This document shows positions 4,947 to 51,336 of a stretch of 64,000 nucleotides of DNA, in pieces. The notes beneath the pieces were generated by a model. The model was not told the origin of the DNA. It did not search any database and saw nothing but the letters and a program-made list of their open reading frames with translations. The translations under genes were made by a program, and so were the position numbers. Numbering within the stretch: the first letter of the stretch is position 1; the number at the start of each line of letters is the position of its first letter. The DNA is from Paramacrobiotus metropolitanus (taxonomy: Eukaryota > Tardigrada > Eutardigrada > Parachela > Macrobiotidae): contig NW_026570226.1 in assembly GCF_019649055.1 (NCBI RefSeq), forward strand, positions 2,666,001 to 2,730,000, written 5' to 3'.

Positions 4947-4984
4947 TGTGCAACTTGCTTTAGACGTAAGATCTCCCAGGCAAT

Positions 4985-8138: not shown

Positions 8139-9815
8139 GATGGCGAGGTAGTACCGCTCTTGCAGAGCGGAATTCCGTTAGAACAGGTACAAATGTTGCC
8201 AGTGGATAGCAAGTGTTGCTTGTGGAACGGAAGCAACACGCAGTACCAAGTTATCAGAATGCGCCCGTCTCTCGGTTCTGCGAGCGGATTTCCACAAAGT
8301 GTGCATTTCTTAAACTCATTCAGAATTCCATATTTTTTGGGGACATAAATTTTTAGTTTCTGTCACCAGTGGTGCGTTACGGCGGTTTTCTTTTAAGACT
8401 ATAACAGTCAAATTAGAAAACAGAATCAGCCGTAGTGGAAACCGTTGCGTCAGTTTCGTCACCTTGGTGACATTTGATAAGTAATTTCAGAAGAAAAATC
8501 ATTTCCTTTTATTAATTATCGCGGCACTACGTGGCAACTGGACCTAAAAATCGAGTGCTAAATATTTCCCAGTCTATAGATGCAGCGTGCCATATAGATG
8601 CAGCGATTGTTACCTGACGGAATGTGCGCACACATTGCAACTGAAAGAAGAAGAAACAAATAATTAATAACTGGAATTCGAGACATTTACGGATTGCGAT
8701 CACCTTTAAAATTCAATATTCCAAGTGTTGCGAGGAACATGAGCTGTGCAACAAACAGCAGAGAGGTCAAATTTGATAACATCCAAATCACCAATTCGCT
8801 GCAACCTTCTTTGTGTTATAGCGCTCGTTTCCAGTTTTATACGAGTTCAGTCAAAATTACACCACCTAGGTAACGTCCCTGTGCTTTCTTGGATTTTTAA
8901 CTACAGAGTAAAAGAGTAAATACCGGTATATTGGCATTTGTTGCCAAACGCTTCACCGCAGAAAACATGGCGATCAAAAACTTCCGTCTTATTTCTCAGG
9001 GTCCGCAAAATCGATCCTTGAGCTATTACTGTATTAACGGACTTAACAACTGTGACTGGATGATACTTGGATAATGATAAAGCACATAAGTTGACGCTTA
9101 GAACTTTAGAAATGTTTTATAAAAGTGTAAATGTCGATAATTACAGAGTGCGTTAGTTGTGTGGGCTACACTGAACCGGCTACAGATGCCATTTCTCAAG
9201 GAACGGAACACTTTTTTGAGCGCGCTTTTCAATGGTGCAATAACATTTGCTGCACCAGGCTTTTACGATCTAGTGCCTTCTTCTTTGACGTAATGATACA
9301 GGGAGAGCCCGCATTCAAAAATAACTGATAATTATATTGGTGTCCGGTTTCCTATTCAGAATCAGATTTTTGGGTCGTTTTCAGTGTGCAACTCCATTTT
9401 GATTTTATCTTCTTTACAAAACTGTCATGTCTCATTTGTGGCATTATGGCTGAAATCTTTATTTCACCTGCTCTTCTTAAAATCATAAATGAATATCAAA
9501 TTTTCTACGTGCATGAATTTTAAAGAACAATATCGTTAAGCATATGAAAGCACGTAACAAGACTTAAAAGAGCATGTAAAACTTATAAAAGACGACCAGT
9601 TGTCACAACTCGTGAACCTATTAGGCAGGGTGGTGCTCGCTTATAGCGCCGCTCGTTAACACGATACAAGTACTAGACTTCGAGTACTGATAAAAAAGCG
9701 AAAACATTACCCGTGTTGTAAAAATTGCAGGTGATTCTGTACGTGTACTGTAGCAGTAAAAACCGTTCATGAAAAGCAATGTAAAAGTGAAAATGTAAGT
9801 GTAGTAATCTACAGT
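8139..9815. other. Intergenic, GPCR2 5' flank
   Basis: No gene found. Blocks at about 8260-8320, 8462-8560 and 8626-8724 resemble 11200-11265, 11397-11490 and 11560-11660. They mark the 5' part of a tandemly duplicated unit that carries GPCR2 and GPCR3. Confidence 0.55.
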
Positions 9816-11093
9816 TCAACTTTGTGGCCGCCGACAGATTAAGTGACGAAGATCCGGCAGTGACAAAGCAAAGATTATAGGATCGACAATGGACTGCGCG
9901 TCATTTAATGCAAAGATCCAAAACAGGACCATGGGATCTTCTATATCTGCTACGATAGGGAAGAGGACAACGCTGGGTGTCCAGCAAATAAAAATACTGG
10001 CGGTCAACGTAGTCAGCAGTAAAAAGGCGTTGCGATCCGGCTTTGCCTGTTGATTATTCGATTGTGCCAATGAATCGTGAAGTGATGGCACTTGACTATC
10101 TGCAAAGCTCAACTCTAAATTATCTGGTTACGGGAGAAACTAAACGAAACCGGTTGCTTTTCGCGAATAAATATTAGTTGCTACTTTTAATGTTCCAGCA
10201 TATGAGTATAGGAGTACACAACCGTTCCTTGTTACAAAATTTGCGTTTGCGTGCAAAATATTTTGCCCCATATAATTTTTAAGGAGCTCCTCAGTTATTT
10301 AAGTAATTATTAAGTAAATTATTGACCTCACAGTCCTCACTGAATTATTTTATTCAATACGTCCATAGAAATTTTTTTTACCGTTACTCCGTGAGTTTGG
10401 ATTCGAATGACGAATTTGCCGCAGCTTTTGCAAGCGCCTTCGACGCATGAAAAGAACGACCGGATACTGAGCCAGCACAAGGACCACAGCAATGAATGAC
10501 ACAGTTTGAATAAAATACAACCAATCGACCTCCGTAGACACACTAAAGTTCATCTTGCAGCCTTTTTTCGTTTCCGGCCGCCTGTACAGGAGCGCATCGA
10601 CGACACCTAACGGTACCACAATCAAATGCGCAGCTATTCCGCAAAGGCTGCAAATAACTATGGCCATCCTTGTATTATGGCGTTGGCGATACTGCACCGG
10701 AAATATCAGCGCACAAAAGCGGCTGACAGCGATAGCTGTATGGATGAAATACTGGCACTGTGGAAGGACATTCACGAGATAAATACGCAGGGTGCACCAG
10801 GTCGAACCCCAGCACCACACTGCGAATATATTTTTTATCACATTGAGAGGTCCTAAACATGCTGCATACAAAAAATTGCAGCTCAAAAGCGCAAAGACGT
10901 AAACATGAAACCCCCTAACCAGGCGAGAATTAATGAGGTAGACAACCAGCACAACTCCATTCAGCGCAAAAACTGGGATATAAATACACAATAACGCGAT
11001 TCCATCAAATGTCCAGATGACCGGATTGGCGTTCCCATTACATACGTGCGCACTTTGGTTTGAAACTGTGCTGTTATTCATTATGCCACTCAA
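9816..11093 (-). CDS. Rhodopsin-like GPCR 3 (orphan)
   Basis: Intact class A receptor of 331 residues. Exons 10382-11093 and 9816-10099 join at phase 1 (donor GTAAAA, acceptor GAGCTTTGCAG). The N-terminus has several Asn-x-Ser/Thr sites. Helix 1 has LNGVVLVVY, with the usual helix 1 Asn. Helix 3 ends VSRFCALIF (Arg of DRY kept). The second extracellular loop has a conserved GCKMNF block. Helix 5 is followed by a basic RRRRLQKLRQ loop. Helix 6 has ICWTPSVV, a full CWxP. Helix 7 has DPIIF in place of NPxxY, then the SLPDLRHLICRR tail. It is the best preserved member of its subfamily here and a useful reference for the damaged GPCR2. Ligand unknown; a peptide or chemosensory role is only inference. 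Confidence 0.82.
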
Positions 11094-13471
11094 TACATAT
11101 ACGCAGTACCGCTTTCGCAGAGCAAAATTCCTTCAATAAAATCAAGAATAAACCAAAGCGTTATCGATAAATGGAGACGATATTCTCAATAGAATGCGAT
11201 TTTTACTGGGTTTTCGAGTGGCTTTGCCGCAAACTGTTCCTTTCTTACGATCCCGCATTTTGTTCAAGATTATTCAATCAGCAGAAAATCTTTTGAAGTT
11301 CATCGTGAATCCCCCCTTTTATTTCAAAAATATACCAGGCGGACAACAAATCACAAATGTGTCACGTGCATATCACAGCTTCCTCAGTCCGGTGACCTTC
11401 TAATGAGCAGTTTTAGCAGAAAAATCATTTCCTTTATTAGTTATCGGTACAGATATGAACTGGACCTGAATGTCGAGAGGTGATGCTGAAATCAATACGT
11501 GCAACCAGCCATACGCTTGTTGTTCGAAGGAAGTGCAGCGCGGTTGAGTGCGCTTAAAGGCCAAAGCCATGCAACAATGCAGCTTAACGGAAATAAACAT
11601 TTAATAATTTAATTTCGAGACATTTTCAAATTGCGACCACCCTTGGTTGCCCATCAATATTCAAAATGATGCCTTAAACATGAACCGTACAATAACCACA
11701 CACGGCTTTAATTTTATAATTATACCGTTATCCTCATTCAAATCCTGAGTATAGGAAAACCATCAAATTGCTTTATTGCTTTCGTGCGCTGAGGCGTACT
11801 TTTGAGCTTTATTATATCTGCTAGTTCAGAGGAATCGTGCCGCTTGAATAAACGCTCCTTTAATTCCTTGGAATTCTAATTCCCGAGTGGACTACTTTGG
11901 AAATAATGGTCAAACGATGCCGAAAACGTGACGCTTAAAAGCATCCGTTCGATTTCTTTAACGTCCGGCTGCTGCGCCAGATACTTTTACATCCAAGCTC
12001 GTAATCACAGATTGCTAAAACAGGTATCCCCGGTATGCTAAAACAGAATCCCGGTGAAATGCAACTCTGGACGCGCACCAGCTGTTGGTGTGCAATCTTC
12101 GGTTACCTACTCGCAGAAAACCTCCTCTCAGTTTACGTCAGGCAATATAAAAAGGAAAAAGACAATTATAGAGAGAGACAGGTAAAGAAAATTGACTGCA
12201 CTGAAACATGTGCGAGAAGAAATTTTCCCTAGCTGCTTTAGAACATCGAAAACCAGAAAGCTAATCTGCCTGGCCCGTGCCGGCATACATGCGGTGGTGC
12301 AGCAGTAGGCTTAACAGAAGCAGATATCAACTCAGAAGTAGCCTTTGGATCGTTAATAAATGCGAATGTCGATGTGAATGTAGCTTTTCAGCTTTTGCAT
12401 GTATTTAGTCTGCCACTATGCCGGCATGCAGTATGGATCGTAATAAAAGAAATATCTATAATGGTCTGATTGGTCTCACTTTGGCCACATACTGCACGTC
12501 AAAATCGTGGATCAAGACAGGCTCCGTGAATACATCACCAATGACTTTAATGGTATTTGGGGGAAAACGTATCGATGACGCACGTAACCGACGCAGCGGA
12601 TTCGACAGGAATGGGAGTATCCACAATCCACAAATTTAGTTACTGTATCTACGTAAGCCTTTAGGTCGGGCAGGAGAAATCACGGTTGTGAGCCTGCCCT
12701 TTACCGAATTTGCCGGGCGAGCGAGTGCTGTATTCCTCAAGAATATCAGAGAATTCCGGTAGCTGCACGGTTTAAATTAAATTAACTGTTTCTTTTACCC
12801 CTTCCGCTTTTTTTATTTCACAAAATACGGATACAGCTGAGAATCAAAAACAGTCCTTATCACAACAAAAAAAGTTCATTTTTACGCTGCCGCTCCTATA
12901 AATAAACTGTACGATCCATTTGTGGATCCATTGTGTTGGTTGCCAAGTAAATGACATAGTCCTGTGTTTTAACTCTATACGTTGCATTGCAACGTTGCAA
13001 CGGTTGCAACAAAAGTGTTTTTAAAGTCAAGAATAAAATTAATATTAATTAATATTAAAAATGGTATACCGGTGCTTAATACCGGTATTCTGCGCACCGG
13101 CATTATGCACCGTTACACTAGCAATTCAAAGACTTTTAGCATAACTGTGATTACGTGTTTCTCAGTTGCCGGAATAAATGCAGACTTACGTACATGAAAA
13201 GCAATTGGTACAACTGTCATAAATCATGATCACTACTCACTAGCTTGGCCTTTCTAATGAAATTTTTAACCAGACACCTTGCGTTATACGACAATTGAGC
13301 CATCTTAAGTACGTTTAAAAAATGCCAAGGAGTTTCTGCAGCAGACTATTTTGTCCTTTTCTGGGTTCTCGGGCACTCAGTGCACCTCCCGCCCAGCGAA
13401 TTAAATTCGTCTATCGAGGGTGCAATAGTGTGCTTGGTTAAAGCGCGGCATAATTTCAAGCGTATCCAGTT

Positions 13472-13522
13472 ACGGTACTGTACAATCGTGGGCAGGAACC
13501 ACGGTACTGTACAATCGTGGGC
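13472..13522. repeat. Short direct repeat, two copies
   Basis: A 22-bp unit beginning ACGGTACTGT occurs at 13472-13493 and again at 13501-13522, 29 bp apart. No coding context. Confidence 0.8.
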
Positions 13523-14043
13523 TCACGTTCGTAAAACCCCGTATCGGACAGACAGGATGCAGCTTGTGAAAACGAAGATTCTGCGTATATAAAAGAACAC
13601 CGAGACAAAAGTGAATGCAGTAAGAGCGAGGGTCCTTAAATTACTTACGCAGCGAACCAGGGAGGTAGAGATCCGAAAAATGTGACAAGTCTATAAATCG
13701 TGGTTTTCTGCGAAAGTAACTTATGGACGCCCCATCTCGAGGTGAGCAAATTCGCAGGGTAGGATATTCGCAGGGTATACCACACCCGCAAACATAATAA
13801 AATTGAACCAATACCTATTATCAATTTGAACAGTAATTCACTCATTTTAGAAATGGTACCGTACCTGTTTCCGCGACGACTTAATATCGTATCTGCCACG
13901 GCGATACGATATTACTCGTAATATTCTTTTCAGGACATTCAGCATTCAATAGTAAGTCTGTAAATGTGCCAGATTTCCAGAATCGGCGCTCATGTAGCGC
14001 TCAAAAGATAACTGTGAGCCATTTCGACCGTCAAAAAAGTTAA

Positions 14044-14071
14044 CAAACCTTTTTGCCGGCAAAAAGGTTTG
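14044..14071. repeat. 28-bp perfect palindrome
   Basis: A perfect palindrome centred on GCCGGC, with arms CAAACCTTTTT and AAAAAGGTTTG. A related half, AACCTTTCTGCCGGC, follows about 30 bp later. It could be a transposon end, a protein-binding site or a foldback; nothing nearby decides. Confidence 0.85.
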
Positions 14072-15387
14072 ATTCGTAAGCCGTGAGCCAATCAACCTTT
14101 CTGCCGGCTATACCCGTGCAATAACAGTACCAGTCAAAATAATTTCTTTTGTGGATGGCACATCGCTAGTTTTGTTTGGTGGTGCTTGATTAAAGTTTGT
14201 GACCGTGTGGCGACGATGTTTGGTTATTGCCTCATTGGAACAAATTTAAGTGAGCTTCGTACACGATTTCATCGTTGATAACTGCCAAAGAAACGTATTA
14301 TGCATAGAAAAACGAAAGGATTTGTTTCGAAAGTACTTCGTAATCATCAATCCACTCTAGCAAACAACAACATCTCATCCAAGAGAATTATTTTACTACA
14401 AATATTTTACTTTGGCTGCAAATACCGCGCACAACAAAACATGACTTTTCAACCAGTATACTGCATCTACGAGAACGCGATTGGCTGAATTCGATTTACA
14501 GCAGTTTGTCATGTGATATAGGGTACGGATAAGAAACGAATCTGACAAACCGTTTCCGTCTAAGACGGTGCCGCCCCTTCATGCCTTGTATTTTTATTGC
14601 TACAACGCAGATTCTCCTACCAGCATAACGTTTGGCTGCAAGTACGTCAACCTGCAACTTAGAGCATTCATTTTTTATGTGCAACAAAACAAGCATTTCA
14701 TTATTAGATTGCACACACTCTTTTAGTCCAACGACTGGGCAAGCAGCATTCATTTTTTATATGCACAAGCAACAAAATCATTACGAAATGGGAATGCGAA
14801 TGTCAGGGAGCTATTATCTGTTATAATTCGGTACTGACACAATAATACGAATAGTTTACGCGAGCAGGAGAGTTTCCATTTGAAGATTCCCTTAGATATT
14901 CGAAGCAGCAAGCTTACGCCAAACCGAATTAAAGGTTATCTGATGACCGTTTACAAACCGAGTCGAGACACCTGAAGGTCTAGAATTATTTCTCGTATGA
15001 TAAGCGAATTCTGGCACACCGGGAAGATTTTGACACGCTGTATACATCTAAGAAGCCAGGTGACTACCGACAGGACTACAAGGTGTTTACAGCCTGTATA
15101 CAAATGTCTACTGTGACTTCAAGAAGAGAAAAAACGATTCACTTTTTTCTTTGGTACGAAACGTGCCACAGGTGCTCGTTACCGAGATTTAAAACTTTAT
15201 ATACCCGAGTTAAACGCACCCATAGGGATCCGAAGGCGCAAAATATGTACCTGGGAAGTTTTAGATTTGCTTAATTGATACTAAAACCGAGTAGAGAGAG
15301 ATGCACCACTGAAACATCTTGTACGATCTATACGAGTACTAATTCTTCGCCGAATCAGCGAATGCCGTTAATTAAAGTTTAACATTC

Positions 15388-16765
15388 TCACGCAACGCAG
15401 GCAGCCGGACAAGTGCTGTTTATGAATTTGCAAGGCAGAAATCCTCCAGACGCGTCCGTTCTCTCGTACGACAACAGCATATACGTTAGATACAATCCTA
15501 GCAACTACAACCAAGATGAACCATTACTTTCCACATAACAATATGCAAAAAGATTGCGCATTTCGTAAGCGATATGGGCGCTTTGTTAACTAGGAGAGCA
15601 TGGTCGACGTGTCTTCTTACGGTCATCACGGTTTGTCGGTTCAAGCGCGCACATGATCCGAGAGTCATAACGGACGGATTGTTTTGCATGTTGTTTAGCA
15701 AGAGCAGATAATACTGCTTCCGATTTTGGATCTCTTCCTTTTGCTGAAACCGGTTAAAAGTCGAGACAAAAGCGTCTACCTACGAACAACATTATATGCA
15801 GTAACTGTGCGATTGTGCTGTGTCAGATTTATTACCTTGTCGCTTAAGTACAAAAAGCACATGGTTCGTAGCGCTACTTGAGTAAACTTCAACACAGACA
15901 GAGCTCCCGAATCCAGGAAGGCTTGACCTTGAAAGAAGTTTGCTGTGCTGTATACCAACGATACAATATCGTGTATGTAATAAATCAAGAGAAACGATCC
16001 CATCAGTTCATCCACTTCTTGTACGGTTTGGCCGATTAAGTGATACTCGTTGAGATATTTGTTGATAGGAGCCGCTTTCGATTGCGGGTCAGTGAAACGG
16101 TCAATGATCTTCAAGTGCGCGGTAATCTTGCCAACACAGATACCACAGATAAACGCTACGAGGGCGATGTAGGCTAAAGCAACCAAAAGTCCCACTGTGT
16201 AAAACTCCGCAGCCCATTCGGTAAACACCAGGAAAGCATAAGTGCAGCGTTGATCGATAGCGAAGAACTGAAAAACATCGACAGCAATCTGCTCAGCGAT
16301 GCCGCCGACTCGAGCTTCCTTGTACACGCATATGCACTGCAGGGCACCGATCAGGACCAACAACACGACAGCAACCGTGCAGATTGCGTACTCAGAGTTT
16401 CGGCTGATGAAGCGTTGGAATAACGCCTCTGATTGCTGCACTAGGGCTAACACCTGCCGGAAACGTGGGAGTATTATGAACGCCAGGAACGGTATACTGG
16501 CGAATGTGAAGGTCTCACACGCGGACGACAGCATTTGTGGTACGGTGCCGTTCTGATGGTTAATTTTATAAATGATGGTCACAATCGCGAGAATAACAGA
16601 ACTGGACCATATTAGCAGCGCCCAGGCTATCCACAAAATAACTGAGGCACGAAGCGGTCGGGAACGAAAGTTCTCTTTGGGATAGCATGCGGTAGTAGTG
16701 TACAAAATACCATTCATACATTTCCATAAAATCGGCAAAAGTCTAGTCTTTTCCGATGACTCCAT
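15388..16765 (-). CDS. Gustatory-receptor-like chemoreceptor GR-B (7tm_7)
   Basis: Intact three-exon receptor of 401 residues. Exons are 15836-16765, 15621-15779 and 15388-15504, with both introns phase 0 (donors GTAATA and GTAAGA; acceptors TTCGTAG and TTGTAG). Exon 1 encodes six hydrophobic segments, with the conserved block YYIHDIVSLVYSTANFFQG late in the exon. Exon 2 carries TLGSCARLNRQTVMT. Exon 3 carries the last helix, LYLTYMLLSYERTD, then a short Cys-containing tail. Identity with GR-A and GR-C is high along the whole length. It follows GPCR4 in the same orientation, as GR-A follows GPCR1. The likely role is contact chemosensation at the neuron surface; the ligand cannot be read from sequence. 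Confidence 0.85.
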
Positions 16766-17929
16766 TATTTTTAAGTAATTTTTACTATTTGATCAAATGA
16801 TATTTTTGTACGTGCTTCCATTACGTATCCTGAAGCGAGCGATCGGCAAGTGTCAATCTGTTAGGGAATGTGTGAGAGCTGGTCAGATACTGGTTCAAAA
16901 TTGCATGGAAAGGGAGGTTTTTAACTAAGGAGTTTCGAAAAGCGGTTTGCGTACATGAAATTTTAGTGCACTAGAAACCCAAGCACTAAAACGCGCCACC
17001 AAGGGGAAGTGATCGCGCAGAGATATGCAAGATAGGCAGAACTGAGTGTAAACTAAAGCAGGATGCCCTTTCCCACGAGACGGGCGACATAGTCAGTCTT
17101 GACACCGACAAAGTTCTGATGTCTTTGTGGAACATCTCTTCTCCCACCGGAATATTACGTCGTCAGGTTGCAACATAGGAATTAACCCGAGTTTTAGAAA
17201 AAAGCGTTTGAGTGCGGTTCAGTTGGTGGTTGTATTCCACACTAATTATTGTAGAAACCAGGATGCCAGTGATTTAATTTTTATGGACGAACTACTATTA
17301 TTATTACTTGGTATTGGTTAAGGCAATATTTTTCCGCTTTGATAATATAGAATTTTAAAAAAATGTGGCATGCTGGCGAATTAGAAGGTCTCACGAACGA
17401 AAGTCAATGTTAAAACGAAATGTCGGTGGGTTCATTAAGACTTCAGACCTGAGCGTATAAAAATGTTTTGTCTATCGTTATTGTCATGCAACAAGTGATG
17501 ACACAAACTTTTCCCATAAATGTTCTTAGCTACCGGACGAGTTATCCGTTCGATGAAATCTTAGTGCATTCACAGGACTGCGCGTTGCTTTCATCCAGGC
17601 GGCCATCGTACATGCATTCATTGATCGTCAGACATTTGTATTCGTGGATGAGTGCGGATTGTACATATGCGTGAATTTCCCGTACATTGCACCCGGTGGC
17701 TCAGTTTTCAACAGCGTGTGCAATAATTGCGTTGTAAGATGACCAAGCAGATGCTGGAAATTCCAAACGAGAGTGTATCGCAGAATATACCTGTGACTTC
17801 CGAGTCCAACTTTGGAGAGCAAATTGTGAAGCAGATGGCAAGCAAACGGATCAAAGGCCGGGTACACTGCGCTCCAGTCGGAAGCTGGGACCGGCGGAAA
17901 CTCCAAATAAGCGTGACATATGTGGGACT
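16766..17929. other. Intergenic between GR-B and GPCR4
   Basis: No supportable gene. Open frames at 17628-17906 (minus) and 17727-18029 (plus) are in or antisense to the end of GPCR4 and show no domain. Confidence 0.55.
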
Positions 17930-19396
17930 CTACCGTCTTTTAAACACCAGCTGGCGCAAATCTGGTAATGACAAGGTGAAGATAATAGGATCCAGGATGG
18001 ATTGCACCAAGGCAAGCATCCCGAAATAGAAAAGTATCATGTAGTTTTCGATGAACGGATAGAAGGGATAAGACACAACCGCGCAACTCCAGCAAATAAA
18101 GATGCTGATGGTCAATATGGTCAACAAGAGAAAGGTATTGTTTTCAGATTTTTCAGTTGTGTTGCTTCTGGTGACAGTGGACGACAAATCTGCTGACTGT
18201 GCATTAGGCCCTGCAACATTGAACGCGCTAAAATTTATACAAAGTCAGTAACCACAAAACTAATTACTTATTTTATTGTGTATATAATAGCTTCATTTTG
18301 ATTTCGCGGGATCTCCGCTAGCAGCACGGGTGCCTATGCCATCGGTACTTGACAACTGGAAGGGTCCATTGTTAAAACTAGAACAGTACCCGCAAAATTT
18401 ATTTAGTATGGAAAAGGCCTGAAAACGTGCTGCTCTAAGGCACTGTGATAATACTCCTTATTACTTGTGTTTATTTTAAATCTGTATAGCCACGCCTTTT
18501 GAGCATATGCAGATAAAATTATTTTTTTTAGGCAAGCCAGGATAGTACTCTACCTTTCTACAAACAGTCTTAATTTTTTGAATTAAACCCGGAAAATACG
18601 CCCTGGTTAGTACGCTTAAATTCGTTACTGTGTAGTATGTGCTGATAATTATTAGTATGTTTAATGTGAAAAGGTTTGAATCCGTATTACCAGGAGGAGC
18701 AACTCTGCTAGTGCGCATAGCCGCCAGTTTCTTCGCGCGCCTTCGCCAAACAACCACAACAACAGGAAACAAACCAAGTATTACAAACAGAGTGGCCAAA
18801 TTTACCGCTGCTGCCACGTATACATAAACTTGCTGCGACGACGGAGTGAAATTAATCTGGCATCCCCCTTTGGTTTCCGGCAGGCGGTAGACCACCGCGT
18901 CCACCACAACAACCGGGAAGGATACGACATGCGCCGCAGTCCAGGAGATGGCGTTGATTAGCACGGCGACGCGGGTCGTGTGAATGTGCCGGTATTGCAC
19001 CAGGAAGATTATGGCACAGAAGCGGTTGATGGCGATGGCTGTGTGGATAAACACCGGGACGAGTGGCAGTGTCCATTGTGCGTACATGTACACGTTGCAC
19101 CAATGAAAACCCAAGCACCAGACTTTGGACAGGCGGAAAATGATTTCCAGTGGTGCGAAGAGTATAGCGAAATGAAAGTTGGCGAACAACAGTGAAACAA
19201 TGTAAACGTGAAAGTTTCGACAAACGCGGAAATTGATAATATATACTGCCAGGACGAAAGCGTTACCGGCAACTATTAAGGAGCAAACCGTAAGTGTTGT
19301 AACAGGAACCAGGGACCATCGAGCGGGATCAATGGAATTACTGAAAGAACTGCAGTCATTAACTGATGCGTTAGAAACTGAACTATTATTTGCCAT
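17930..19396 (-). CDS. Rhodopsin-like GPCR 4 (orphan)
   Basis: Intact class A receptor of 328 residues. Exons 18691-19396 and 17930-18210 join at phase 1 (donor GTAATA, acceptor TGTTGCAG). Reading through the donor would give a longer frame ending at 18476, but the paralogs and the helix 6-7 exon show the spliced form is right. The start is MANNSSVSN. Helix 3 ends INRFCAIIF. A GCQINF block lies in the second extracellular loop. WRRRAKKLAAMRT follows helix 5. Helix 6 is ICWSC (CWxP proline lost, as in GPCR1). Helix 7 is DPIIF, then SLPDLRQLVFKRR. It groups with GPCR1 by motif and start, and with GR-B forms a two-gene cassette resembling GPCR1 + GR-A. Confidence 0.82.
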
Positions 19397-21278
19397 TGTT
19401 GTCCTCTGGTTCAGGCAAATATTTGTATGGTGAATGAGCAGTTTTAACGCTGCTACGGTCGAGGTCGGTAAAAACCGACGTTACGGTCAACCTTTCGCTG
19501 CTACCCTCCAGTGCGAATTTTCAATGAAATCTTGTTGTAAATGAAATCCTCGGCCGTTCCGGAAATTACCTGGCTAGAAATCAGAAGTTGGTGAAATTGA
19601 ATGCAAACCGCCGCGGTTAGGCGGAGAACATTAACGAACGGCGCAGGTGTTGCGTAAGATCCAGCCATCTAAGCCGGAAACCAAGGTTTTATGCAGAAGG
19701 CTCCGTATCTACGTTTGGCTGTGTCCCAGTTAAGTGAATGGCTTTGCAACATATTAGGACGTTTCAATATCGCAGTAACTGCGGTGGCTGGCTCTGTGTT
19801 GTGTTCAAAATTACCATTTAATATCATTTTTTAAACTTGGTATACATGGAATACCACTCCGTGCACGGTAACATTCGATGCGGCGCACTAACTTATTTCT
19901 TACTAGTCTGCGTTTCAAACATAATTAATACACTTTGTACCCCTTCGGGTAGTGAGTACTAGAGGGGAATGGCTTTGCAACATTATCATATAACTTTAGA
20001 TAGCGCAATAGTTGCAGTGGTTGGCTCTACGCTTTGCTCCAAAATTAGTGAAAATTGTCATTCAATAATTTCAGTATAATTCCTTGGTACTTGGTACATG
20101 CACAGGTTGCGCTCGAAATTTGGCTTTACAAGAAAGCTAAACCAAGTTTCTTAAAAAATTCAGAAATTCTCGTGGCAAATACGTTCGTTGAATTTCTTGC
20201 GCTTATTTTGGAGTACCTATTTAATGTCATTTTTGCTAAAGCACATTCAGGAAATGGTGGCGAGCTAAATTTGCATAAGAGGACACGCAGACTGAATAGG
20301 AAAACTGCTACACTTAACGCGAAAGGTGACAACATTCAGTCGGTATCGACATGACCTATATGCACAATACGCAATCGTGTGCGGTCTGAATTTATAGTTT
20401 CACCAAACAGTCGAAATCCACAACAAAATTTGGAAGTGTATGCATACAATCTGAATGATTTTGTGTAGAAACTCCTTCGGAACGCTTCCTACGGAAGCCT
20501 TACGCAGGCGCGTGGATTGATTAAGAATAAATCCGAAAAAACCACAAAATACTACAGCCGTGCAAGAGAATTTCGGTGTGCTTAATGAAAATTTGAATTT
20601 CATTTATGCTAGTCAAATCGGAACAATGCGTTATCTGCGACTCTGCGTACGAGTTGCCCAGTTCTAACGTGGAATTTCTAGAATTTGGGATTGGCTGAGC
20701 AACTCTGATGTACAGCACGTTTTCTTGACCTGCATTCCTTTTCATTTCATATTCTCCTGCTCAGCCTGGACACTGCATTCTTGTCCTGGGAAACGAGCAA
20801 TCAAGTATTCCAGTTCAATAATGTTTTTCTGAGCGCAGATAGTATGGAGAGTGTGGTGAGTCATCCGCTAATGATTGTTGTTGGAATACCGACCGTCTAG
20901 CTTTGCGATACATCTCGTACTGATGTACAGCATCCCTTCACTACTCAAATGGGAATCCGACAGAGATTCGGCAACTGAACAGACAGGATTGAGGCTAACC
21001 TTTAGTGTCCTTTACTTTCCATCTTTTCCCCGTTAGAGGATAGACAGACGCAAAAGCTCAGAACAGACAGAATCATTCTGACCTTTCATTTAGAGAGTTC
21101 TGACCTTTCAGTTACACGCTGGATCCTATACTAATATAATATATAGACAGACTACGTCTGCCGTATGTTATATTAGGCTTGCCCGTTGCAACCGTGCAGC
21201 CCCTGCGTAATAATGCATACTGCTTAACTTGACATGATCCACTGGATTCTTGGGCTTATATTATCAGCTGTCATGGGC
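19397..21278. other. Intergenic between GPCR4 and GR-C
   Basis: No exon with splice-phase support. The open frame at 20055-20354 (plus) has no recognisable features and overlaps a direct repeat, listed separately. Short repeats of a TTCTGACCTTTCA motif occur near 21075-21105. Confidence 0.5.
19735..20100. repeat. Imperfect direct repeat, about 233-bp period
   Basis: A block starting GAATGGCTTTGCAACAT at about 19735 recurs at about 19968. Both copies share a GTGGTTGGCTCT/GTGGCTGGCTCT stretch and a TCAAAATTA/CCAAAATTA stretch in the same order. The copies have diverged and show no coding potential. Confidence 0.65.
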
Positions 21279-31124: not shown

Positions 31125-32312
31125 TTGATTTTCTGTTTATTTATTAATTATTTGTATTGTTTACATTCATCAGGTTCGTTTATTACTTTATCTGTTCATA
31201 TTTTAGTTACTTCATAATTTCGTTTCACTATTCATCTTTTTATTTTAGTGGTTAAATTATCTTGTTTATTTTTGATGTATTTATTTTTCTTTCATTTCGT
31301 GACTTCGTTTCACTGTATTCAATTTTAATTTCGTTTGTCTATTGTTTTTCATTTTATTTTTTAATGCTAAATGTAGAAAATTGCATTTTAAAAAATCGAA
31401 TTTTTTCACAGCGTTTTCCAGTGCGCTACACATAAAGGGTCGCGAAAATGAAACCCGCCTTTGGCGCTTGGAAGGACTACAACGTGAAAGTCTACGCCTA
31501 GAAGCACGATCTTCCTTGGTGAATTCCGGGTAATGCGAAATCGCGTTTGGTGAAGTTTTGAGAGCGCCCCGTTTTACGTTTGACATTGTTCTTTTTACGA
31601 TTAATTTGGTTTTGCGGATCCGCTTAAAGAGGTAAAGCATTTTTTGCGTTTTTGTTTTTCGTATTTTACGTGTGCGGTTTCGCCCGTACTGTGAGTGTGG
31701 ATTTCCACAATTCAATTTTGATTTTCTGTTTATTTATTAATTATTTGTATTGTTTACATTCATCAGGTTCGTTTATTACTTTATCTGTTCATATTTTAGT
31801 TACTTCATAATTTCGTTTCACTATTCATCTTTTTATTTTAGTGGTTAAATTATCTTGTTTATTTTTGATGTATTTATTTTTCTTTCATTTCGTGACTTCG
31901 TTTCACTGTATTCAATTTTAATTTCGTTTGTCTATTGTTTTTTCATTTTATTTTTTAATGCTAAATGTAGAAAATTGCATTTTTAAAAAATCGAATTTTT
32001 CACAGCGTTTTCCAGTGCGCTACACATAAAGGGTCGCGAAAATGAAACCCGCCTTTGGCGCTTGGAAGGACTACAACGTGAAAGTCTACGCCTAGAAGCA
32101 CGATCTTCCTTGGTGAATTCCGGGTAATGCGAAATCGCGTTTGGTGAAGTTTTGAGAGCGCCCCGTTTTACGTTTGACATTGTTCTTTTTACGATTAATT
32201 TGGTTTTGCGGATCCGCTTAAAGAGGTAAAGCATTTTTTGCGTTTTTGTTTTTCGTATTTTACGTGTGCGGTTTCGCCCGTACTGTGAGTGTGGATTTCC
32301 ACAATTCAATTT
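31125..32312. repeat. About 593-bp tandem duplication, two copies
   Basis: Copy 1 starts near 31125 and copy 2 near 31718. They are essentially identical apart from one-base length changes in T and A runs. The basic open frame present in both on the minus strand (from 31715 and from 32309) ends differently because of those indels, so it is probably not a gene. Confidence 0.9.
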
Positions 32313-32318
32313 TGATTT

Positions 32319-33845
32319 TTCCTTCAGTTTAGTGATGACAGCGGCGTTCGATGTTATTGTTATCAGTGTTGTCAGTATTTATTTTTCTGAATGTTTTTTG
32401 CACCGTATACTGTGTTAATTATTAAAGCTAGTAAGCTGTCATTGTATTTGCATTGTTGTTCACGTTTAAAAGCGGCGGAAGTACACGTAGTTCGCATCTG
32501 ATATTTATGGGATTATTTCCCACCTTATACCTCAGTAAGGTCTACCTTGCATTGGTCCACTACCCAAACAATAGTTCTCTGATACCCCGCTGATGTTTAC
32601 GTATGGCATGCCCCGCTAGTGGCCATTACCTCCACGTGTTGTGAATGACAAAAAAATAGTGTTCCAATTTCTGTTGTTGTTCTTACCGCACGTATATGTT
32701 GTTGAAAACGTTTTGTGGGAGCTGCACCAGTAATGTGCACAGACCAAGTCAGAAGGAAACAGATGTTGGTAAGCTACGAATCTTATCTCAAAAACGAGGC
32801 TTTTCTAAACCGGGAACGGCGTTTTCCAAGGTTTACACAGAACGGTAGAAGGCTTTCGCGGCGGCAAAGCAAAGGCGCGGGAAAGCTAAAAAAGCCAGCA
32901 TGAAACAGCAAAGGCAAGGGTAAGGATGGTCGACCCCAGAATATCTTCACGTACAATTCGAAGATGGTTGCATAGCGGTAAACAGTAAACATCACGTCAC
33001 TCCGATAAGTGGGGTCAGCATCTGATAAACATTGCACAAGCATACAAACTCAAAAAACAGGAAGCGGGCGCACCCAGCGAGCGGATGTTTGCAAACTGGT
33101 AGTGAGACAGTGCATTCCACTGAAGTCTAGTAATGCAGATTGGTGCCTCACAGTTTAGTGGATCACGGGTGTATCAGTATGTACAGATCTACTGTTTGAG
33201 CACAAACCCTGCTCAGAAAGCATCTTCCGAGCTAGCTAAATGATAAATACAGGCCGATTTTTGTTGAAAGAGTTTACATCAAGCTATCAAAGTGCGCTGT
33301 CAGTTGTTAAGGATCTTTATTGCATACGGTGATACGAACGTTGTAACTTGGAAACTTATCCAGAGACTACTTCACATACTCCCGGTACCCCTTTTTATTG
33401 ATCGGTAAGAAACCATGTATTCTCGTTTAATGTCGCGCTCGTACGGGGAAGGAGCTCAGTTTCCTTTTTTATTGAATTTGATTAGTTGAATACTTAAATA
33501 TGTAGTAGAATTGATATGCAGAATTTCAATTAGCGACTTTCGAATAATTTTTTTATAAAAACAAATATGTATGTGATATGTATTATATGTATTTTATATA
33601 ATTATATTCTTACCGCAGAATAAGATCTATTATACAAGCATACAGTGTTGCATAAGGAAATAATGTTATTTATGCTAAGGTTGTTGAATTACTGTGCATA
33701 TAATGTCATAGTAAACCCTAAAAGTATGCAACAAAAAACATTTTTAAATCTGGTATTATTGTGTTAATAAAAACAATTTTGACTACCAGAACATGCAACG
33801 ATCTATCTGTCTTTTAGCTTGAACGGCCATTTCAGGATTGAATCA
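32319..33845. other. Intergenic, upstream of the GTPase gene
   Basis: AT-rich, with no supportable gene. The short frames at 32715-32903 (plus) and 32783-33043 (minus) overlap each other and show no features. Confidence 0.5.
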
Positions 33846-42617: not shown

Positions 42618-45268
42618 CTAAGATTTCTCTTCCAGCTTAATCAGCTCGACGATGCCTTCGTACATCTCCTTCACAGCATCGAATTCCGTCAATCCCATAC
42701 GGCGCTGTTGAGGGGAAAAAATGCAGCCGGGTGAATTTTTTGGCAGACGATGGTGTTATTAATAAGTTTGTTAATAGGCAGCTAAATTTAGAATTATGGT
42801 GCGATCGCAGCGGCTGTTGCCGCGTCAGCGTTCCACTGCTCTTGCTTATACTGACCTTGTTGGACACGTCATAGACGCCGCCGATGGATTCGCTGTGCTC
42901 GCCGGATGTGCCGCGCACTTGCAGATTATACTTGGCGGCAATCTTGTGGAATTCATCGAGATTCTTACTGATCTTGGGTAGCTTAATGTGGACGCTGGCA
43001 CGAATGGTGGTTCCTGTATAAAGCATACCATATAGTTGCGGATCTTTCCTTGTTGCTATATATTTTATTTATTCTCACCCAAATTGGTCGGACAGAAGGT
43101 CAAGTAGCCCAGACGTTCATCGCGGGAGAACGGCAACTTCTTCTCAATCTCGTTCACACCCTGTTCGATTAGCAGAATGGTTAGTATACGAGTACGAGCA
43201 TAATAAAAACAAGAAACTAAGCGGAAGTTATACCTGGATGAGGCGTTTGTAGACGGCCATGAGATCGCCTCCCTTCTGCATGCTAATGATGCGCAGATGA
43301 TCTTCTTCGTTAACCCACACCAGGAACGTCTTGTCCTTGTTGTGGTAGATACCGCGACCGGTCGGCCAGAAACGGTTAGCATTGGCAGCCTCCAAGAAAC
43401 TAGACGGAGCAATCAACCGTGTTAGCCACGTCATTTGCCGTGTGACCAAACGCGCGACTAAGAAAGATCTTTAATTTCAGATTTAACCGGCAAAAAAACT
43501 GCTATCTTTCTAAGAGGATTCCTCAAAATAATTTTTGTAGAAACTTTTTAGTTACCATTACCACGTATACCGAAGTTAGTTATCCGCCTGGTACAAAAGC
43601 AAGATTCACTCAAATTTTAAAGAAAACCGAAGCTTTTTATTTTCATACTGTATGAGTTGATTCTTTCTAATTTCGCTAATAAGTGCGAAGAATTTTATGC
43701 TGCACCTGTGTTTTTTAACACGAAGAGTAAAGTGCTACGGTACAATTCGCAGCGCGCTAAGCGCAGTAACAAAGAGCGGCTAAAACTGGCGGGCTGCTAT
43801 TAATTATTGTATCTGTATACGCGGTACTCCTCTACATACCGGTCGCCTTCCTTGAACAAGAAGTGATCATCGATCAGCTGCTTCTGTGTGTCCTTCGACA
43901 TGCCGGTCAGCGGATAGTATGTACCAGCCAGCTCACCCGGCAGCCCGTTCAGCGCATCCTTCACCTTTCCCTCCATGTCTTTGTATTGCTGCAAAACAAC
44001 ACAAAGCCGCGTATTATACCGTCTGTTTATTGGATAAATATCCCGTTGATTGTTCGGCCCAGCTGAGAAACGCTGACAGTTGTTGATCGATCTATCGATC
44101 CGTGTAGCTGGGAACGCCGCGCGAATGTTGGAAAGAATCACGTGCGAATAATGGACGGAAGAAGTGCGTTTTTACCTGCTCGGTGAGGAGCGGATTGAAT
44201 GGATAGCCCTGCAGCGATCGACCGCAGCGCACGCGGGTGGAGATAATGTACTTGCCCTCCGGATCCGGATTGGGGAAGTTGATCTTGTCCAGGCCCAGAT
44301 CCATCGGCGGATGTTTGGCGCCGCCCTTGATGTCGAAGCCAATGTGGTAGTCCTGTGTACAGGCACGACAGGGCGTTTTTCACAAATTTAATTGCTTTTC
44401 GTATAATCGATAGATTTCTGTCATCAGTTCTACTTACAGTTAGTGTCAATTTGTACGTTACAAACGGAATTAGGAAATTAACCGACCATCTTATCGCAGT
44501 TTTTCCAGCTACAGCCTTTACGAAACAATTTAAATATGTAGGAAAAGTAAAAACCTATATATAAATATGACTCAAGCTTAACTCAGGTAAATATAGTGGT
44601 GTGCTTATTTAATAGAAACGTCAAATACATACATATCATTATGTATTTTATTGTTAATGTTTCTGTTGGCTTTGACCTGCGCATTTTTTTGCGATAATTG
44701 TTATATCGGTTAGTAGTTGCATAAGGCGACGTACGTTGATGATGGGATAGAAGATCTCAGAAAAGGTGGTGTACGATTCCGCATCGGGAGCATAGATGCC
44801 GACTCCACTGTCGGTGTTAATCACACCTAAAAATTAAAATCATATTTCAAAAAATTAACCTTAGGCATTTAAATGTTTCAGCTGCAAGAAATTTTGCTGC
44901 TGGATAAATTCTCCTGTATACCAGCCTGTTTATACAATAACGACTTAAATTTATCCGGATAAATCTAAATAGTAAGACACTAAGACTGATGATATTAAAA
45001 ACCTGAAAAACATCCTGCGTTAAATTAATCACTGACGAGTGCCTAGTGCCTACTTAATTTGATCAGGATTAATTTAATTTAAAACGGGATGATCTGCCTC
45101 CATACCCGACTGGATGCAATCCCACAGGGAAGCACCCATCTTGGTCTTGGTGTTCTTCAGCTTGTTGACCACATCGGGCGTCAGGTATTTCTTCAACAGG
45201 GAGTGGCTCTTGTCATCCTTGCCCAGGATGCCGGGCGCCTCTTCCATTTTCTTCACGACATCGGCCAT
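42618..45268 (-). CDS. AK: Arginine kinase
   Basis: Phosphagen kinase: MgATP + L-arginine to ADP + phosphoarginine, the cytosolic energy buffer of ecdysozoan muscle and nerve. Eight exons, 45106-45268, 44735-44826, 44176-44352, 43840-43988, 43234-43399, 43079-43160, 42856-43013 and 42618-42704, give 357 residues, the usual monomer length. All phases agree, and every intron is GT-AG. The ATG at 45268 gives [10 protein letters not shown]. Diagnostic parts are the guanidino-specificity loop [13 protein letters not shown] in exon 2, [15 protein letters not shown] in exon 3, GTYYPLTGM in exon 4, [16 protein letters not shown] in exon 5 and the reactive Cys of [10 protein letters not shown] (residue 272) in exon 6. 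[10 protein letters not shown] in exon 7 is the mobile nucleotide-site loop. No defect is seen. Confidence 0.97.
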
Positions 45269-45426
45269 GGCTATAGTTGCAGTAGTGCTAATACCACGTC
45301 TCCAACGGCAAGAACGCGCGAAACAATGAACGGGGCGAAGCAGGATCGTGTCACCGGCACCGTACTATGTAGTGCTGCAGTTAACAACCGTTCTCGACTA
45401 ACGCCCGCGTCGGCTCCAGCGCCGGG

Positions 45427-46977: not shown

Positions 46978-48989
46978 TTATATGCAGTTTTCGCAGGCGA
47001 TGGAGGCGACAAAGGTGCCGTTGGCGCGGACATTACATCCGTCGGCGTACTTTTGAAAGACATGCCAGTTGTACCAGTTCATCAGCCGGAAGACGGTGTA
47101 GTAGCCGGATTCCTGCTCCTCCGTCCACTCCGATCCGTAGTAGAACTTCACACCGGCCACGTTGGGTGCGATGTACCGCTGCAATATACACTCACTGTCT
47201 CATCGCTACCAACTAAAATGATCGCGCAAAATACGCACCAGAAATCCCGACAGCATTACGCGAATGGCGGAGAAGTGCAGGGCGTTACGGGACCAATGGA
47301 ATTCCGCGGTGTCATCGATAGCAGCCACGTATTTTTCTGTTTGTTGCCCGAACATATTAAATATTTTGTAGTACACAGATTTAATTATTCACATTGCACA
47401 TATTACTGCTTTACATATAACTCTATTTTTTAATAATTATTGCTTTAATTGATTAATAATTAATTTTTAGTGACGATAAAGATATTATGATATCTGATAC
47501 ATTATTTTCATTACAACGTCCGTTTTTATTTCGATTTTTTTCTTGCTTGAATTTTGCGAAAACTGCATCTTAAACCAGTGTAACGTAATTTACCGGATTC
47601 CAAATTAAAAAGTGCGCCTGAAATAGAAAAGCAATCGTTATTTCCAATTAGCTGTACCAATGGCCGTTTTGTTTTGTGGAGACGGAAACGCCGGTATTCC
47701 GTAACTTACGCATTTCTTTGTCGAATTCCCTATAACAATGATCGAAGCACTGTTAAATAATCACATTACAAAAATCACTAGAAGCAAGAAAATGATCTAT
47801 TGTAAAAAATAGTGATACCCCATAACAACTTGAATGACCAGTGTTGCCGGTTGGAAAGTCCAGAAGGTGTCCAAATCCACACTTAAATCTCCCAAACCGA
47901 GCATCTGCCCGGCATCCGGATTCCAGTAATCAAAGCTACATTACGTCGTTAAATATTAATTCACATTTCACACCACTACATGTATCCGGTAAATGGAAGA
48001 GATTATATATATAAAAATAAAATATTCTAAAAAAGTTAACTATCAAAATCAATTGGAAAGCCTTTCTGATGTATCACTTTGTGCTTTATTAGAAGACTGC
48101 ATTGTATGTCAGAGACCAAGGTTGCACAAACGCCTCTCTTCTACGATTGACGATACCTCCACCTAACTGCACAAGTACACAATGTGTTTTCAAGTCAATT
48201 AGACAACTTTCGAAAAAAATTCGAATTACAAGCATTAATATTACCGTGTATCCGAGAAATCAAACAAGTGTTATCTGTGACACACGAACAAGTTGGTATA
48301 GCGCGCGTACAAGTAATGCTTACTAGTTGCCAATTGTTTTCCCGATGATGATCAGCCCTTCTTTAACCGACGTTTGATTTAGCGCATGCGCGGCACGCAG
48401 TTTTGACCTTTCCCAGTCGGCAGCCATAAACTTTAGCTGGTCCAAAGACATTCCTAACCGTAAAACAAAATGCCAGTTGGTCGATTAAAATTTAATTATC
48501 GTACGCAATGGCATTAGTTTAAAGGTCATCAGTACAACTAATGCACATTATAGTTCCGGTAAAATATATAGCGAAATAACTAAAATTATGAAAATGTAGA
48601 GTGTAGACATCCTTTAGACCTTATGTACAAAAATACATTAAAAAATTAGAAAAAAAATTGATAGAAATAATTTTTTAAAAAATAGACATAAAAAATTAAT
48701 AGAAATAATTTTTCCAGACAAAAAAAACGCTGAACCGCTGACGAAAAAAATTTGAAGGCTTACCGGAAAATCCATCGAAGGATTTATTGGCCGTGGCGCT
48801 GTAGGGAAACGGTAGGAGGCGTGGATCCGCCGCTCCGGGAGCGGGCGTGGGTTTTGTCGGATGGACGTATATCGGCGGAAGATTCGTTCCAGCATTCGCT
48901 GCCCCAGTAATAAGCGGCTTATTATTCACATCCACGTCGGCCAACGCCGCTAACACCGGCAGAAAAACCACCACATTGCTGACGAACAT
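46978..48989 (-). CDS. Secreted protein of unknown family, paralog 1
   Basis: Seven exons, 48764-48989, 48324-48453, 47819-47935, 47710-47729, 47594-47617, 47239-47336 and 46978-47178, give 271 residues; phases 1, 2, 2, 1, 1, 0 agree throughout. The fourth exon is only 20 nt and the fifth 24 nt. MFVSNVVVFLPVLAALA is a signal peptide. A PTPAPGA stretch follows, then a helical, Trp- and Tyr-rich body (YFDYWNPDAG) and a C-terminal LMNWYNWHVFQKYADGC block. It aligns with the plus-strand gene starting at 49456 along the whole length: FSGMSL with ASGISY, WNP with WHP, and LMN-HVFQKY-C with FLN-HYVDYY-C. Function unknown. The two genes diverge from a shared region, so co-expression is likely. The final Cys-containing tail is CENCI. 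Confidence 0.75.
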
Positions 48990-49455
48990 GGTCGAATCAA
49001 ATCAGGTAAACTTGCCCACACCACGTCGAAATGTTGTGGCGTACCAAACACTCATCATGTATTTTATAGGCTGAGCAGAATTTATGTCACCGGTACACAG
49101 TAAACTCGCTTACCGATGTCAGAACATGCGAGCGGACGGTGTACAAAGGGGTGTAAATCAACACTCGCTGGGTGTAATCGTAGCGATATTACATACACAT
49201 AAAGCGGAAATATACCGATAATTAGTAATCAAATTTTTAGTGCGCTGCATGTTGAAATGTTAATTAATTTTTATTCTCACGATTATGCTGCAATGCACAA
49301 TTACGTATACCGTCCATCGAACGGAAACGCAGTTTTTCCGAATATGCATACCCAATATCAAGCCGATATAAACGTTCAGTTTCTCTCATTTTCCCCGTCA
49401 TTATTAAATTTTATTTTATTTTTTCCACCAGTACAATTTTTTACAAATAATAACC
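48990..49455. promoter_or_regulatory. Shared bidirectional promoter region
   Basis: 466 bp separate the two divergent start codons. CCTATAAAATA on the minus strand (49060-49070) lies about 75 nt upstream of the left gene's ATG. GATATAAACG on the plus strand (49365-49374) lies about 85 nt upstream of the right gene's ATG. Each gene thus has its own TATA-like box in a common intergenic space. Confidence 0.6.
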
Positions 49456-51336
49456 ATGTTTTCCTTCAGCCTTTTTTCCACATTTTCGATGTTTGTGCTG
49501 GCGACCGCCCAGACGACGGTCAACTGGAATAATCCCGCCCAACAGACCACCACCCACGACATCGCCATTCCCACGCCGGACCCCACTTGGCATCCGCTGT
49601 ACTCCCGCCCGACCCCGGCGCCGGGCGCGTTCGGACCGGAAGTGGTGCCCAATCAGGCGGTGCGCGGACAGAATTACACTCGCATCGAGGGCGCCAGCGG
49701 GATCTCCTATAAACTACTAAACACCGCGCAGAATACCTGGGTGCAGTTGATGCCCATCGCGGCCGGGAAGGCCTACGTTCCCATACACCAGGCGCCGGAA
49801 GTGTTTGCACGGACAGCTATCTGGTTGTAAGTCCACTTACAAGTAGTGCATTCGCTGGCACATAAATACTATTAAATTGCCGTGCATTACATTGATTACT
49901 TTAAAATTGATTAAATATATGTAAATATCATGTTGTATTACATTTACATTCCTAACATCCTTTCAATTTACATTGCTAAATTACGTGCATTTGGGTAAGA
50001 GCGACGTAAACTAAATCAATGAAAAGGCAAAAAAAAATAAATGATTACTTTTTCGTACGATTAATAGGATAGAAACTTTTCCAAAAATAATAATGAAAGT
50101 TAATGAAGGAAGCCGTTCCGGTGTATCGAGTTCTGCTTTATAGCACTGTGCGGTCGGATACCGTTTGTTCAAAAGCCACTTTACTACGATCTGCGATATC
50201 ACCATAGATCTGCCCAAACACAACCAGGTCCTAGTCATTTCAGCCCGATAACTATTTGAAATTTTCTACTGTAGAAAACGCTAACTGTAACCATTAGAAT
50301 GCCATATCCGAAAAATCAAACTGATCTAAAAGGTCACAAAAATTAAATGATTACTTTATTTAATATAATACAATACTGTAAAATACATAGATAGGATAAC
50401 AAATAAGTAAGCAGACCTTTTAATAAAATAATGTGATACATTTTTTAGATTGCTTTTATGGCATCCGGAGTACATGCCGGCGTACAATGTCAACGATGCC
50501 GAGGACGTATGGACTGACCGCGCCCTGGATCCGGTCATGTTCCAGCTCGGACAGTCAGTAGAAAAGATATTTTATTATTCCTGTTTAAAATTTTTCACTA
50601 GTAAACAAAATGAATACATCAGGATTGCTTTTACAGGGACATGAACTGGCAAATCAGTAAGTTTAGAACACATCAAGACGATGTACTCGCATATAAAAAC
50701 CGGTGGATGGCCTTTTCGTTGTGTTACAGCCAACCTGACCGTTTACGAGCCACAAAATAAAACCGGTACGTACCTCGGTACATGTAATTACCGGGTGTTG
50801 CTGTAATTAACATTAAACTGGATTTATTTCATGTTTAATTGTTTTGTGCATTCGATGAACAGCCAATCTAGAGCGGCTGCTGGACAATGCAGCGTTTGCC
50901 AAGTACGAGGAGTCTTTACGGCGTGGGCGAATGTATCACAACATGCCATATTTCATGGTAAAAAGAACTTCTAAAGTTCTAATACTATGTATAACAATTA
51001 TTTTGTAAGTGTATTATGTAATTAAAAAGAACGCGTATTGTTATTTATTTTTATTATTCATATGTCATCATTAAGAGTATTTGCAACCGAATTAGAAACA
51101 AATTTATATTTTTGCTTCTCTTGTAGTGGATGGTGGATGCGGAACTCGCCGCTCTGGAATACCTGATGGGCGACGCGCTGACCGACGAAGCCTACGACGC
51201 CTTCGAGCTGGTCTTCGAATTTCTCAATCTGAAGCAGTTCCACTACGTTGACTACTACAACAACCGCTGTCTGCGCCGTTCCCACCGGTCGGCCTTCTAC
51301 TACGCCGGTCAACCATTCGGTCACCTGCGTTCCTAA
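49456..51336 (+). CDS. Secreted protein of unknown family, paralog 2
   Basis: Six exons, 49456-49826, 50449-50553, 50637-50656, 50730-50765, 50863-50957 and 51127-51336, give 278 residues; phases 2, 2, 1, 1, 0 agree. The donor after exon 2 (GTCAGT) is the weakest site. Exon 3 is a 20-nt micro-exon in the same position and phase as in paralog 1. Exon 1 equals exons 1 and 2 of paralog 1 fused, so one intron was lost here or gained there. The signal peptide ends near VLATAQ. A Pro-rich stretch with RPTPAPGA follows, then an ASGISYKLL helix, LWHPEYMPAYNV, and the C-terminal EFLNLKQFHYVDYYNNRC block. The protein is acidic and aromatic-rich with few Cys. No known domain is recognised. A structural, matrix or secreted-enzyme role cannot be told apart. 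Confidence 0.75.

What the first reader, a model, noticed from the sequence alone, without database searches (positions are those of the whole stretch)
46978..51336. Divergent secreted paralogs sharing a 20-nt micro-exon
Two proteins of 271 and 278 residues, clearly homologous but without a recognisable domain, are transcribed head to head from 466 bp with a TATA-like box each. Both keep a micro-exon of exactly 20 nt, entered at phase 2 and left at phase 1, though its sequence has diverged. Conservation of the micro-exon and the promoter arrangement suggests an old, co-regulated gene pair and an undescribed secreted family.
Basis: partly seen in the sequence, partly recalled or inferred. Interest (0 to 1): 0.75.

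Follow-up and report, generated by a model that had tools for sequence, protein, structure and literature searches.

The report
Secreted globin-derived gene pair, shared micro-exon
Two neighbouring genes that looked like an unknown secreted family are most likely very diverged relatives of the oxygen-binding globins, recognised by a gene layout, including a tiny 20-letter exon, that they share with ordinary globin genes of the same animal.

Summary
In detail: two intact genes (278 and 271 residues), head to head across 466 bp, about 21% identical, each with a 20-nt micro-exon entered at phase 2 and left at phase 1. Without homology the plus micro-exon is well supported (99.3% of model weight), the minus one only weakly (53.9%).

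They are most likely a very diverged offshoot of the globins. No family search with the two proteins themselves shows this. The evidence: introns at globin positions B12.2 and G7.0; the same 20-nt exon (E13.2-E20.1) in two ordinary Pfam globin genes of this genome; three relatives on contig C5, two of them a second head-to-head pair. One relative's core has Globin as its only Pfam match (E 0.045, below cut-off); the five-gene profile matches globins (hhalign P 5e-5; 0 of 200 shuffles reach it). Two C5 copies have saturated synonymous but 2.9% nonsynonymous change, with 7 silent differences in the micro-exon codons, so there it is translated.

Haem residues are eroded (Val at E7, Tyr/Leu at CD1, no F8 His in plus), so they do not pass as haem globins; their function is inferred. 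TATA boxes are at chance level and absent from the C5 pair.

The parts
49456..49826 (+). plus gene exon 1: hydrophobic N-terminus, Pro/Thr-rich arm, A and B helices up to B12.2
50449..50553 (+). plus gene exon 2 (105 nt): B12.2 to E13.2; Pro at C2, Tyr at CD1, Val at E7
50637..50656 (+). plus gene 20-nt micro-exon, phase 2 in, phase 1 out, E13.2 to E20.1
   Evidence: 99.3% of model weight
50730..50765 (+). plus gene exon 4 (36 nt), phase 1 to 1
50863..50957 (+). plus gene exon 5 (95 nt): F region up to G7.0, no His at F8; 65- and 86-nt starts scored slightly higher without homology
51127..51336 (+). plus gene exon 6 with stop: G and H helices, Cys-Arg end
48764..48989 (-). minus gene exon 1: hydrophobic N-terminus and Pro/Thr-rich arm
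48324..48453 (-). minus gene exon 2, after the extra phase-1 intron: A and B helices up to B12.2
47819..47935 (-). minus gene exon 3 (117 nt): B12.2 to E13.2; Pro at C2, Leu at CD1, Val at E7
47710..47729 (-). minus gene 20-nt micro-exon, phase 2 in, phase 1 out; a 40-nt exon is a close rival
47594..47617 (-). minus gene exon 5 (24 nt), phase 1 to 1
47239..47336 (-). minus gene exon 6 (98 nt): F region with His 186 and His 193, up to G7.0
46978..47178 (-). minus gene exon 7 with stop: G and H helices
48990..49455 (.). 466-bp stretch between the two ATGs, one TATAWA per strand (49367 +, 49068 -), not above chance

Best explanation
The two genes are a head-to-head pair from a diverged, probably secreted branch of the globin family. 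Shown here: introns at the globin positions B12.2 and G7.0; a 20-nt helix-E micro-exon (E13.2 to E20.1) shared with two ordinary globin genes of the same genome; three relatives on C5 that link the pair to globins and repeat the head-to-head layout; strong purifying selection and translation of the micro-exon in two of those relatives. Inferred: the proteins enter the secretory route and keep a globin fold behind a Pro/Thr-rich arm, but no longer carry oxygen in the usual way. The plus protein has lost the proximal His and probably binds no haem; the minus protein keeps a His in the F region but has Val at E7 and Leu at CD1. The likeliest role is as paired extracellular globin-fold subunits, at least one haem-free. 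The micro-exon is obligatory, because skipping 20 nt shifts the frame.
For: Exon lengths from B12.2 to G7.0: plus 105|20|36|95, minus 117|20|24|98; C5 reverse 105|20|24|95, C5 forward and its copy 102|20|24|98; globin L007 114|20|18|74, globin L005 114|20|44|48. Phases are 2,2,1,1,0 in six of the seven, 2,2,1,0,0 in L005. A sequence-only alignment puts the E13.2 site in one column in plus, minus, L007 and L005. L007 and L005 score 79.9 and 79.3 bits for Pfam Globin. Intron-anchored globin windows: 0 of 4660 placements on 16 other coding stretches reach plus or minus, true placement first of 151 and of 143; shuffles 0 and 2 of 20000. C5 reverse core: Globin the only Pfam match, E 0.045. hhalign to 8 globins P 0.0011 with three cores, 5e-5 with five, 0 of 200 column shuffles each. 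C5 forward copies: 72.0 of 93.2 synonymous and 10.0 of 344.8 nonsynonymous sites differ; micro-exon codons 7 of 21 nt differ, no residue changed.
Against: Plus and minus have no Pfam match whole or as cores; the C5 forward protein has none either, and the C5 reverse protein none when whole, its core match being below the 22-bit cut-off. A plain globin HMM gave no score for plus and E 0.13 and 0.014 for the plus and minus cores; glocal alignment z is 0.8 and 1.4, with 26 and 17 of 150 shuffles as good; hhalign with the pair alone P 0.11. The E window alone is weak (plus rank 10 of 261, minus 36 of 254; minus B window 14 of 251). The C5 forward gene and its copy fail the anchored test (99 and 91 of 5000 shuffles, ranks 7 and 5 of 139). 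True globins score 43.8-95.0 where the pair scores -4.4 and -11.9. The globin idea came from looking at the sequences, so the anchored p-values are not prospective. No structure could be predicted.
Confidence: 0.75

Rival explanations
1. An unrelated secreted all-helical family whose intron layout matches globins by chance or convergence.
For: No significant family match of plus or minus and no significant plain-profile score.
Against: Five intron phases, the exact 20-nt exon and its column agree with a Pfam globin of the same genome, and profile support grows as relatives are added, though the pair was compared full-length and the larger sets as cores.
Confidence: 0.12
2. Ordinary extracellular haem globins that bind and carry oxygen, only fast-evolving.
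For: CD1 and E7 vary in working C. elegans globins (PMC2228317, passages); minus has His 186 or 193 in the F region; the C5 relatives have Phe at CD1.
Against: Plus has no His at F8 in any register tried, both have Val at E7 and neither has Phe at CD1.
Confidence: 0.09
3. Decaying genes on the way to loss.
For: High divergence (21% identity; end branches 1.54 and 1.96) and loss of haem residues.
Against: Both frames are open over six and seven exons with GT-AG introns, and landmark residues are kept. Strong constraint was measured only in the C5 forward copies, not in the window pair.
Confidence: 0.04

Closest known systems
Globin family (Pfam PF00042), in particular the own-genome globins L007 (C6, about 250 kb away) and L005 (C22)
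   Same: Introns B12.2 and G7.0, the 20-nt exon E13.2-E20.1, Pro at C2, Phe at G5, Gly 15 residues after G7.0; L007 also has a hydrophobic N-terminal stretch
   Different: Pair is not found by the Globin model, has a Pro/Thr-rich arm, 10-13 more residues between E13 and G6, and eroded haem residues
C. elegans globin family (PMC2228317, passages)
   Same: Divergent animal globins with N-terminal extensions and unusual CD1 and E7 residues
   Different: There all 33 keep F8 His and intron positions are not conserved; here F8 His is missing in plus and intron positions are kept
Degenerate arthropod globins: Daphnia HbL with Tyr or Val at F8, Puriana HbL2, hexapod androglobin (PMC7457136, passages)
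   Same: Loss of the proximal His or of all three haem-contact residues has been seen in animal globins
   Different: Found by similarity to known globins; no shared 20-nt exon or head-to-head pair was mentioned in the passages read
Kumaglobin of Ramazzottius varieornatus (title seen in the reference list of PMC12403961)
   Same: A tardigrade globin, relevant if the window is from a tardigrade
   Different: Six-coordinated haem protein by its title; its sequence was not compared here

Membership tests
Globin family, by descent | Introns at B12.2 and G7.0 (common in animal globins, not universal) | tested here: met
   Split residue six before Pro C2 in both, phase 2; last intron phase 0 with Gly +15 and Thr +19. 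Own globins vary: Gly +15 also in L007 and L005 but not L004 or L001; Thr +19 in L007 and L004 only. L003 lacks G7.0.
Globin family, by descent | Match to the Pfam Globin model over its cut-off | tested here: not met
   Plus and minus: none at E<=10, whole or core. Relative C5 reverse: core only, 14.7 bits against 22. C5 forward: none.
Globin family, by descent | Profile similarity across the fold | tested here: inconclusive
   Pair alone P 0.11; with relatives P 0.0011 and 5e-5, hhalign probability 20% and 68%.
Globin family, by descent | Globin fold | not testable with these tools
Haem-binding globin | Proximal His at F8 | tested here: not met
   Plus: none at -12, -11 or the aligned position. 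Minus: His 193 at -12, or His 186 by alignment; own globins have it at -11, so minus is open.
Haem-binding globin | Phe at CD1 and His or Gln at E7 | tested here: not met
   Tyr 136 and Leu 131 at CD1, Val 153 and Val 152 at E7, by intron register.
Haem-binding globin | Binds haem | not testable with these tools
   Needs protein and spectra.
Secreted protein | Cleavable signal peptide | tested here: inconclusive
   Hydrophobic N-terminal stretch in plus, minus and the three C5 proteins; no predictor run.

The most novel reading that the evidence does not exclude
A branch of secreted globin-fold proteins has given up haem in at least one member. Its members are made as obligate partners from head-to-head genes, and a 20-nt E-helix micro-exon, whose skipping always breaks the frame, acts as an on/off splice checkpoint of globin production.
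Probability: 0.15. Interest if true: 0.72.

Novelty: new variant of a known kind. Interest (0 to 1): 0.52.

Why it matters
Globin introns are a classic case for intron evolution, and central introns in helices E and F are described as variable (PMC7457136). Here an intron pair 20 nt apart is kept in seven genes whose proteins can barely be aligned, so exon layout reveals kinship that domain searches miss. It also points to a secreted globin branch with an eroded haem pocket beside near-duplicates under very strong selection, which makes a haem-free extracellular globin role directly testable.

Tried and rejected
Family and PDB-sequence searches with the two proteins gave nothing of note. The first globin-HMM script stopped because hmmsearch gave no score for the plus protein; glocal alignment was not significant. 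A weak genome match on C28 lies in what reads like a palmitoyltransferase gene (the name is recalled, not tested) and was dropped. Partners beside L007 and L005 were sought with tblastn in about 23 kb of flanks and not found; given the divergence this does not show absence. The TATA boxes were rejected as evidence.

That the head-to-head pair was duplicated as a block is plausible, not shown: C5 reverse matches plus best (28%), C5 forward matches minus best (21%), and F-exon lengths pair off as 95 and 98; but the best match of minus is plus, not C5 forward, and the tree leaves the branching inside the clade open and warns of long branches.

Genome searches with plus and minus did not find each other, so further members may be missed.

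Literature: listings seen; passages in PMC7457136, PMC2228317, PMC11191345, PMC6400237 and PMC12403961. These genes and a 20-nt globin micro-exon did not appear in what I saw; most subscription papers are not held.

Full report
OBSERVATION. The window is contig C6, 2,666,001-2,730,000, of a 169.8-Mb assembly in 533 contigs. The proteins are homologous (phmmer 2e-10 for one comparison; 0 of 2000 shuffles reach the whole-protein score). The five shared introns have phases 2,2,1,1,0, so the micro-exon is one part of a conserved layout.

MICRO-EXON AGAINST CHANCE. Scoring alternative GT-AG chains without homology, 99.3% of the weight for the plus gene contains a 20-nt exon. For the minus gene the micro-exon model is first of 321 but holds only 53.9%; a 40-nt-exon model is close behind, and in a stricter run the micro-exon model fell below the donor cut-off. 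Twenty nt is not a multiple of three, so skipping shifts the frame.

WHAT IT IS. The first shared intron lies six residues before a conserved Pro, and the last is phase 0 with Gly 15 and Thr 19 residues on, as at the globin positions B12.2 and G7.0 (positions as defined in PMC7457136). A Pfam Globin search of the genome gave 8 matches, which I read as 7 genes; the window pair is not among them. Two of the seven, L007 (same contig, about 250 kb away) and L005 (C22), have a 20-nt exon in helix E entered at phase 2 and left at phase 1. L007 has all five phases 2,2,1,1,0; L005 has 2,2,1,0,0. L001 and L004 have one uninterrupted 226-nt exon from B12.2 to G7.0, and L003 one exon from B12.2 to the stop; L002 shares the reading frame of L003; the C20 gene, read by eye only, has no intron at E13.2. 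L007 and L005 are clear globins (79.9 and 79.3 bits), and with the micro-exon their helix E aligns without a gap to a solved nerve haemoglobin. A sequence-only alignment puts the E13.2 site of plus, minus, L007 and L005 in one column.

BRIDGING GENES. The last exon of the plus protein found a relative on C5 (E 4e-4, 38% over 50 residues). Spliced, it has 105|20|24|95 from B12.2 to G7.0, the same phases following from the lengths; its first exon is a candidate only, and its B12.2 intron reads through open, so that splice is inferred. Head to head with it, 545 bp between ATGs, is a second gene with 102|20|24|98, and a further copy of that gene follows. The five genes separate from eight globins in a tree (97/98), with long branches. 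The C5 reverse core gives Globin as its only Pfam match, E 0.045 and below the cut-off; its full-length form gives none, and neither do the C5 forward protein or the plus and minus cores. hhalign to eight globins gives P 0.11 for the full-length pair, 0.0011 for three cores and 5e-5 for five cores, two of them near-identical; 0 of 200 column shuffles reach the score in each of the last two.

ANCHORED TEST. Globin-profile windows fixed at the three intron positions score -4.4 (plus) and -11.9 (minus). None of 4660 placements on 16 other coding stretches of the window reaches either (best -15.3), and the true placement is first of 151 and of 143. Shuffles reach the sum in 0 and 2 of 20000. The weight lies in the G-H window, first in both proteins; the E window is weak, rank 10 of 261 and 36 of 254. 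Eight true globins score 43.8-95.0 when left out, so the divergence is extreme. The C5 reverse gene also ranks first (of 218); the C5 forward gene and its copy do not (7 and 5 of 139; 99 and 91 of 5000 shuffles). The idea came from looking at the sequences; the micro-exons of L007 and L005 and the Pfam match of the C5 gene came afterwards and are the more independent support.

IS IT ALIVE. Between the two C5 forward copies, from B12.2 to the stop, 72.0 of 93.2 synonymous and 10.0 of 344.8 nonsynonymous sites differ; the seven micro-exon codons differ at 7 of 21 nt with no residue change. This shows translation of the micro-exon in those copies. Selection on the window pair itself was not measured.

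HOW IT WORKS. Haem residues by intron register: CD1 Tyr and Leu, E7 Val and Val. F8 has no His in plus in any register tried, and His 193 or, by alignment, His 186 in minus. In C. elegans odd CD1 and E7 residues occur while F8 His is kept (PMC2228317, passages). So plus fails the haem-globin test and minus is open. The three C5 proteins have Phe at CD1. Secretion is inferred from hydrophobic N-termini. The role as paired extracellular globin-fold subunits is inference.

PROMOTER. TATAWA occurs once on each strand, but 37.7% of shuffles have at least one on each, and the C5 intergenic stretch has none.

SOURCE. A paper reports a 170-Mbp genome for the tardigrade Paramacrobiotus metropolitanus (PMC11191345, passage), which fits the assembly size. 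That is a hint, not an identification.

KNOWN OR NEW. Central introns in globin helices E and F are known to vary (PMC7457136); E13.2 and E20.1 were not among the positions named in the passages I read. I file the pair as a globin-derived variant, not as a member of the working haem globins.

Noticed in passing
L013 + strand 4687-6295 and L019 236-1919 (C5): Two copies of the C5 forward gene are nearly identical in protein from B12.2 on, yet saturated at synonymous sites, an unusually strong constraint for so odd a globin relative.
   Followed up: partly
micro-exon donors of the seven genes: The donor just after the 20-nt exon is GTAAGT in six of seven genes (L005 has GTATGG), perhaps compensating for the tiny exon.
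   Followed up: no
L002 (C291) and L003 (C22): Two globin loci share the same 129-residue open frame except near its start: a recent duplicate or two haplotypes.
   Followed up: no
window 31284-31733 and 31986-32378, minus strand: Two nearly identical open frames about 700 bp apart, a local duplication.
   Followed up: no
window about 4000-19500, minus strand: A row of similar single-exon seven-helix receptor-like open frames (family recalled, not tested).
   Followed up: no
window 45077-45364, minus strand: Open frame that looks like the start of an arginine kinase gene next to the pair (recalled, not tested).
   Followed up: no
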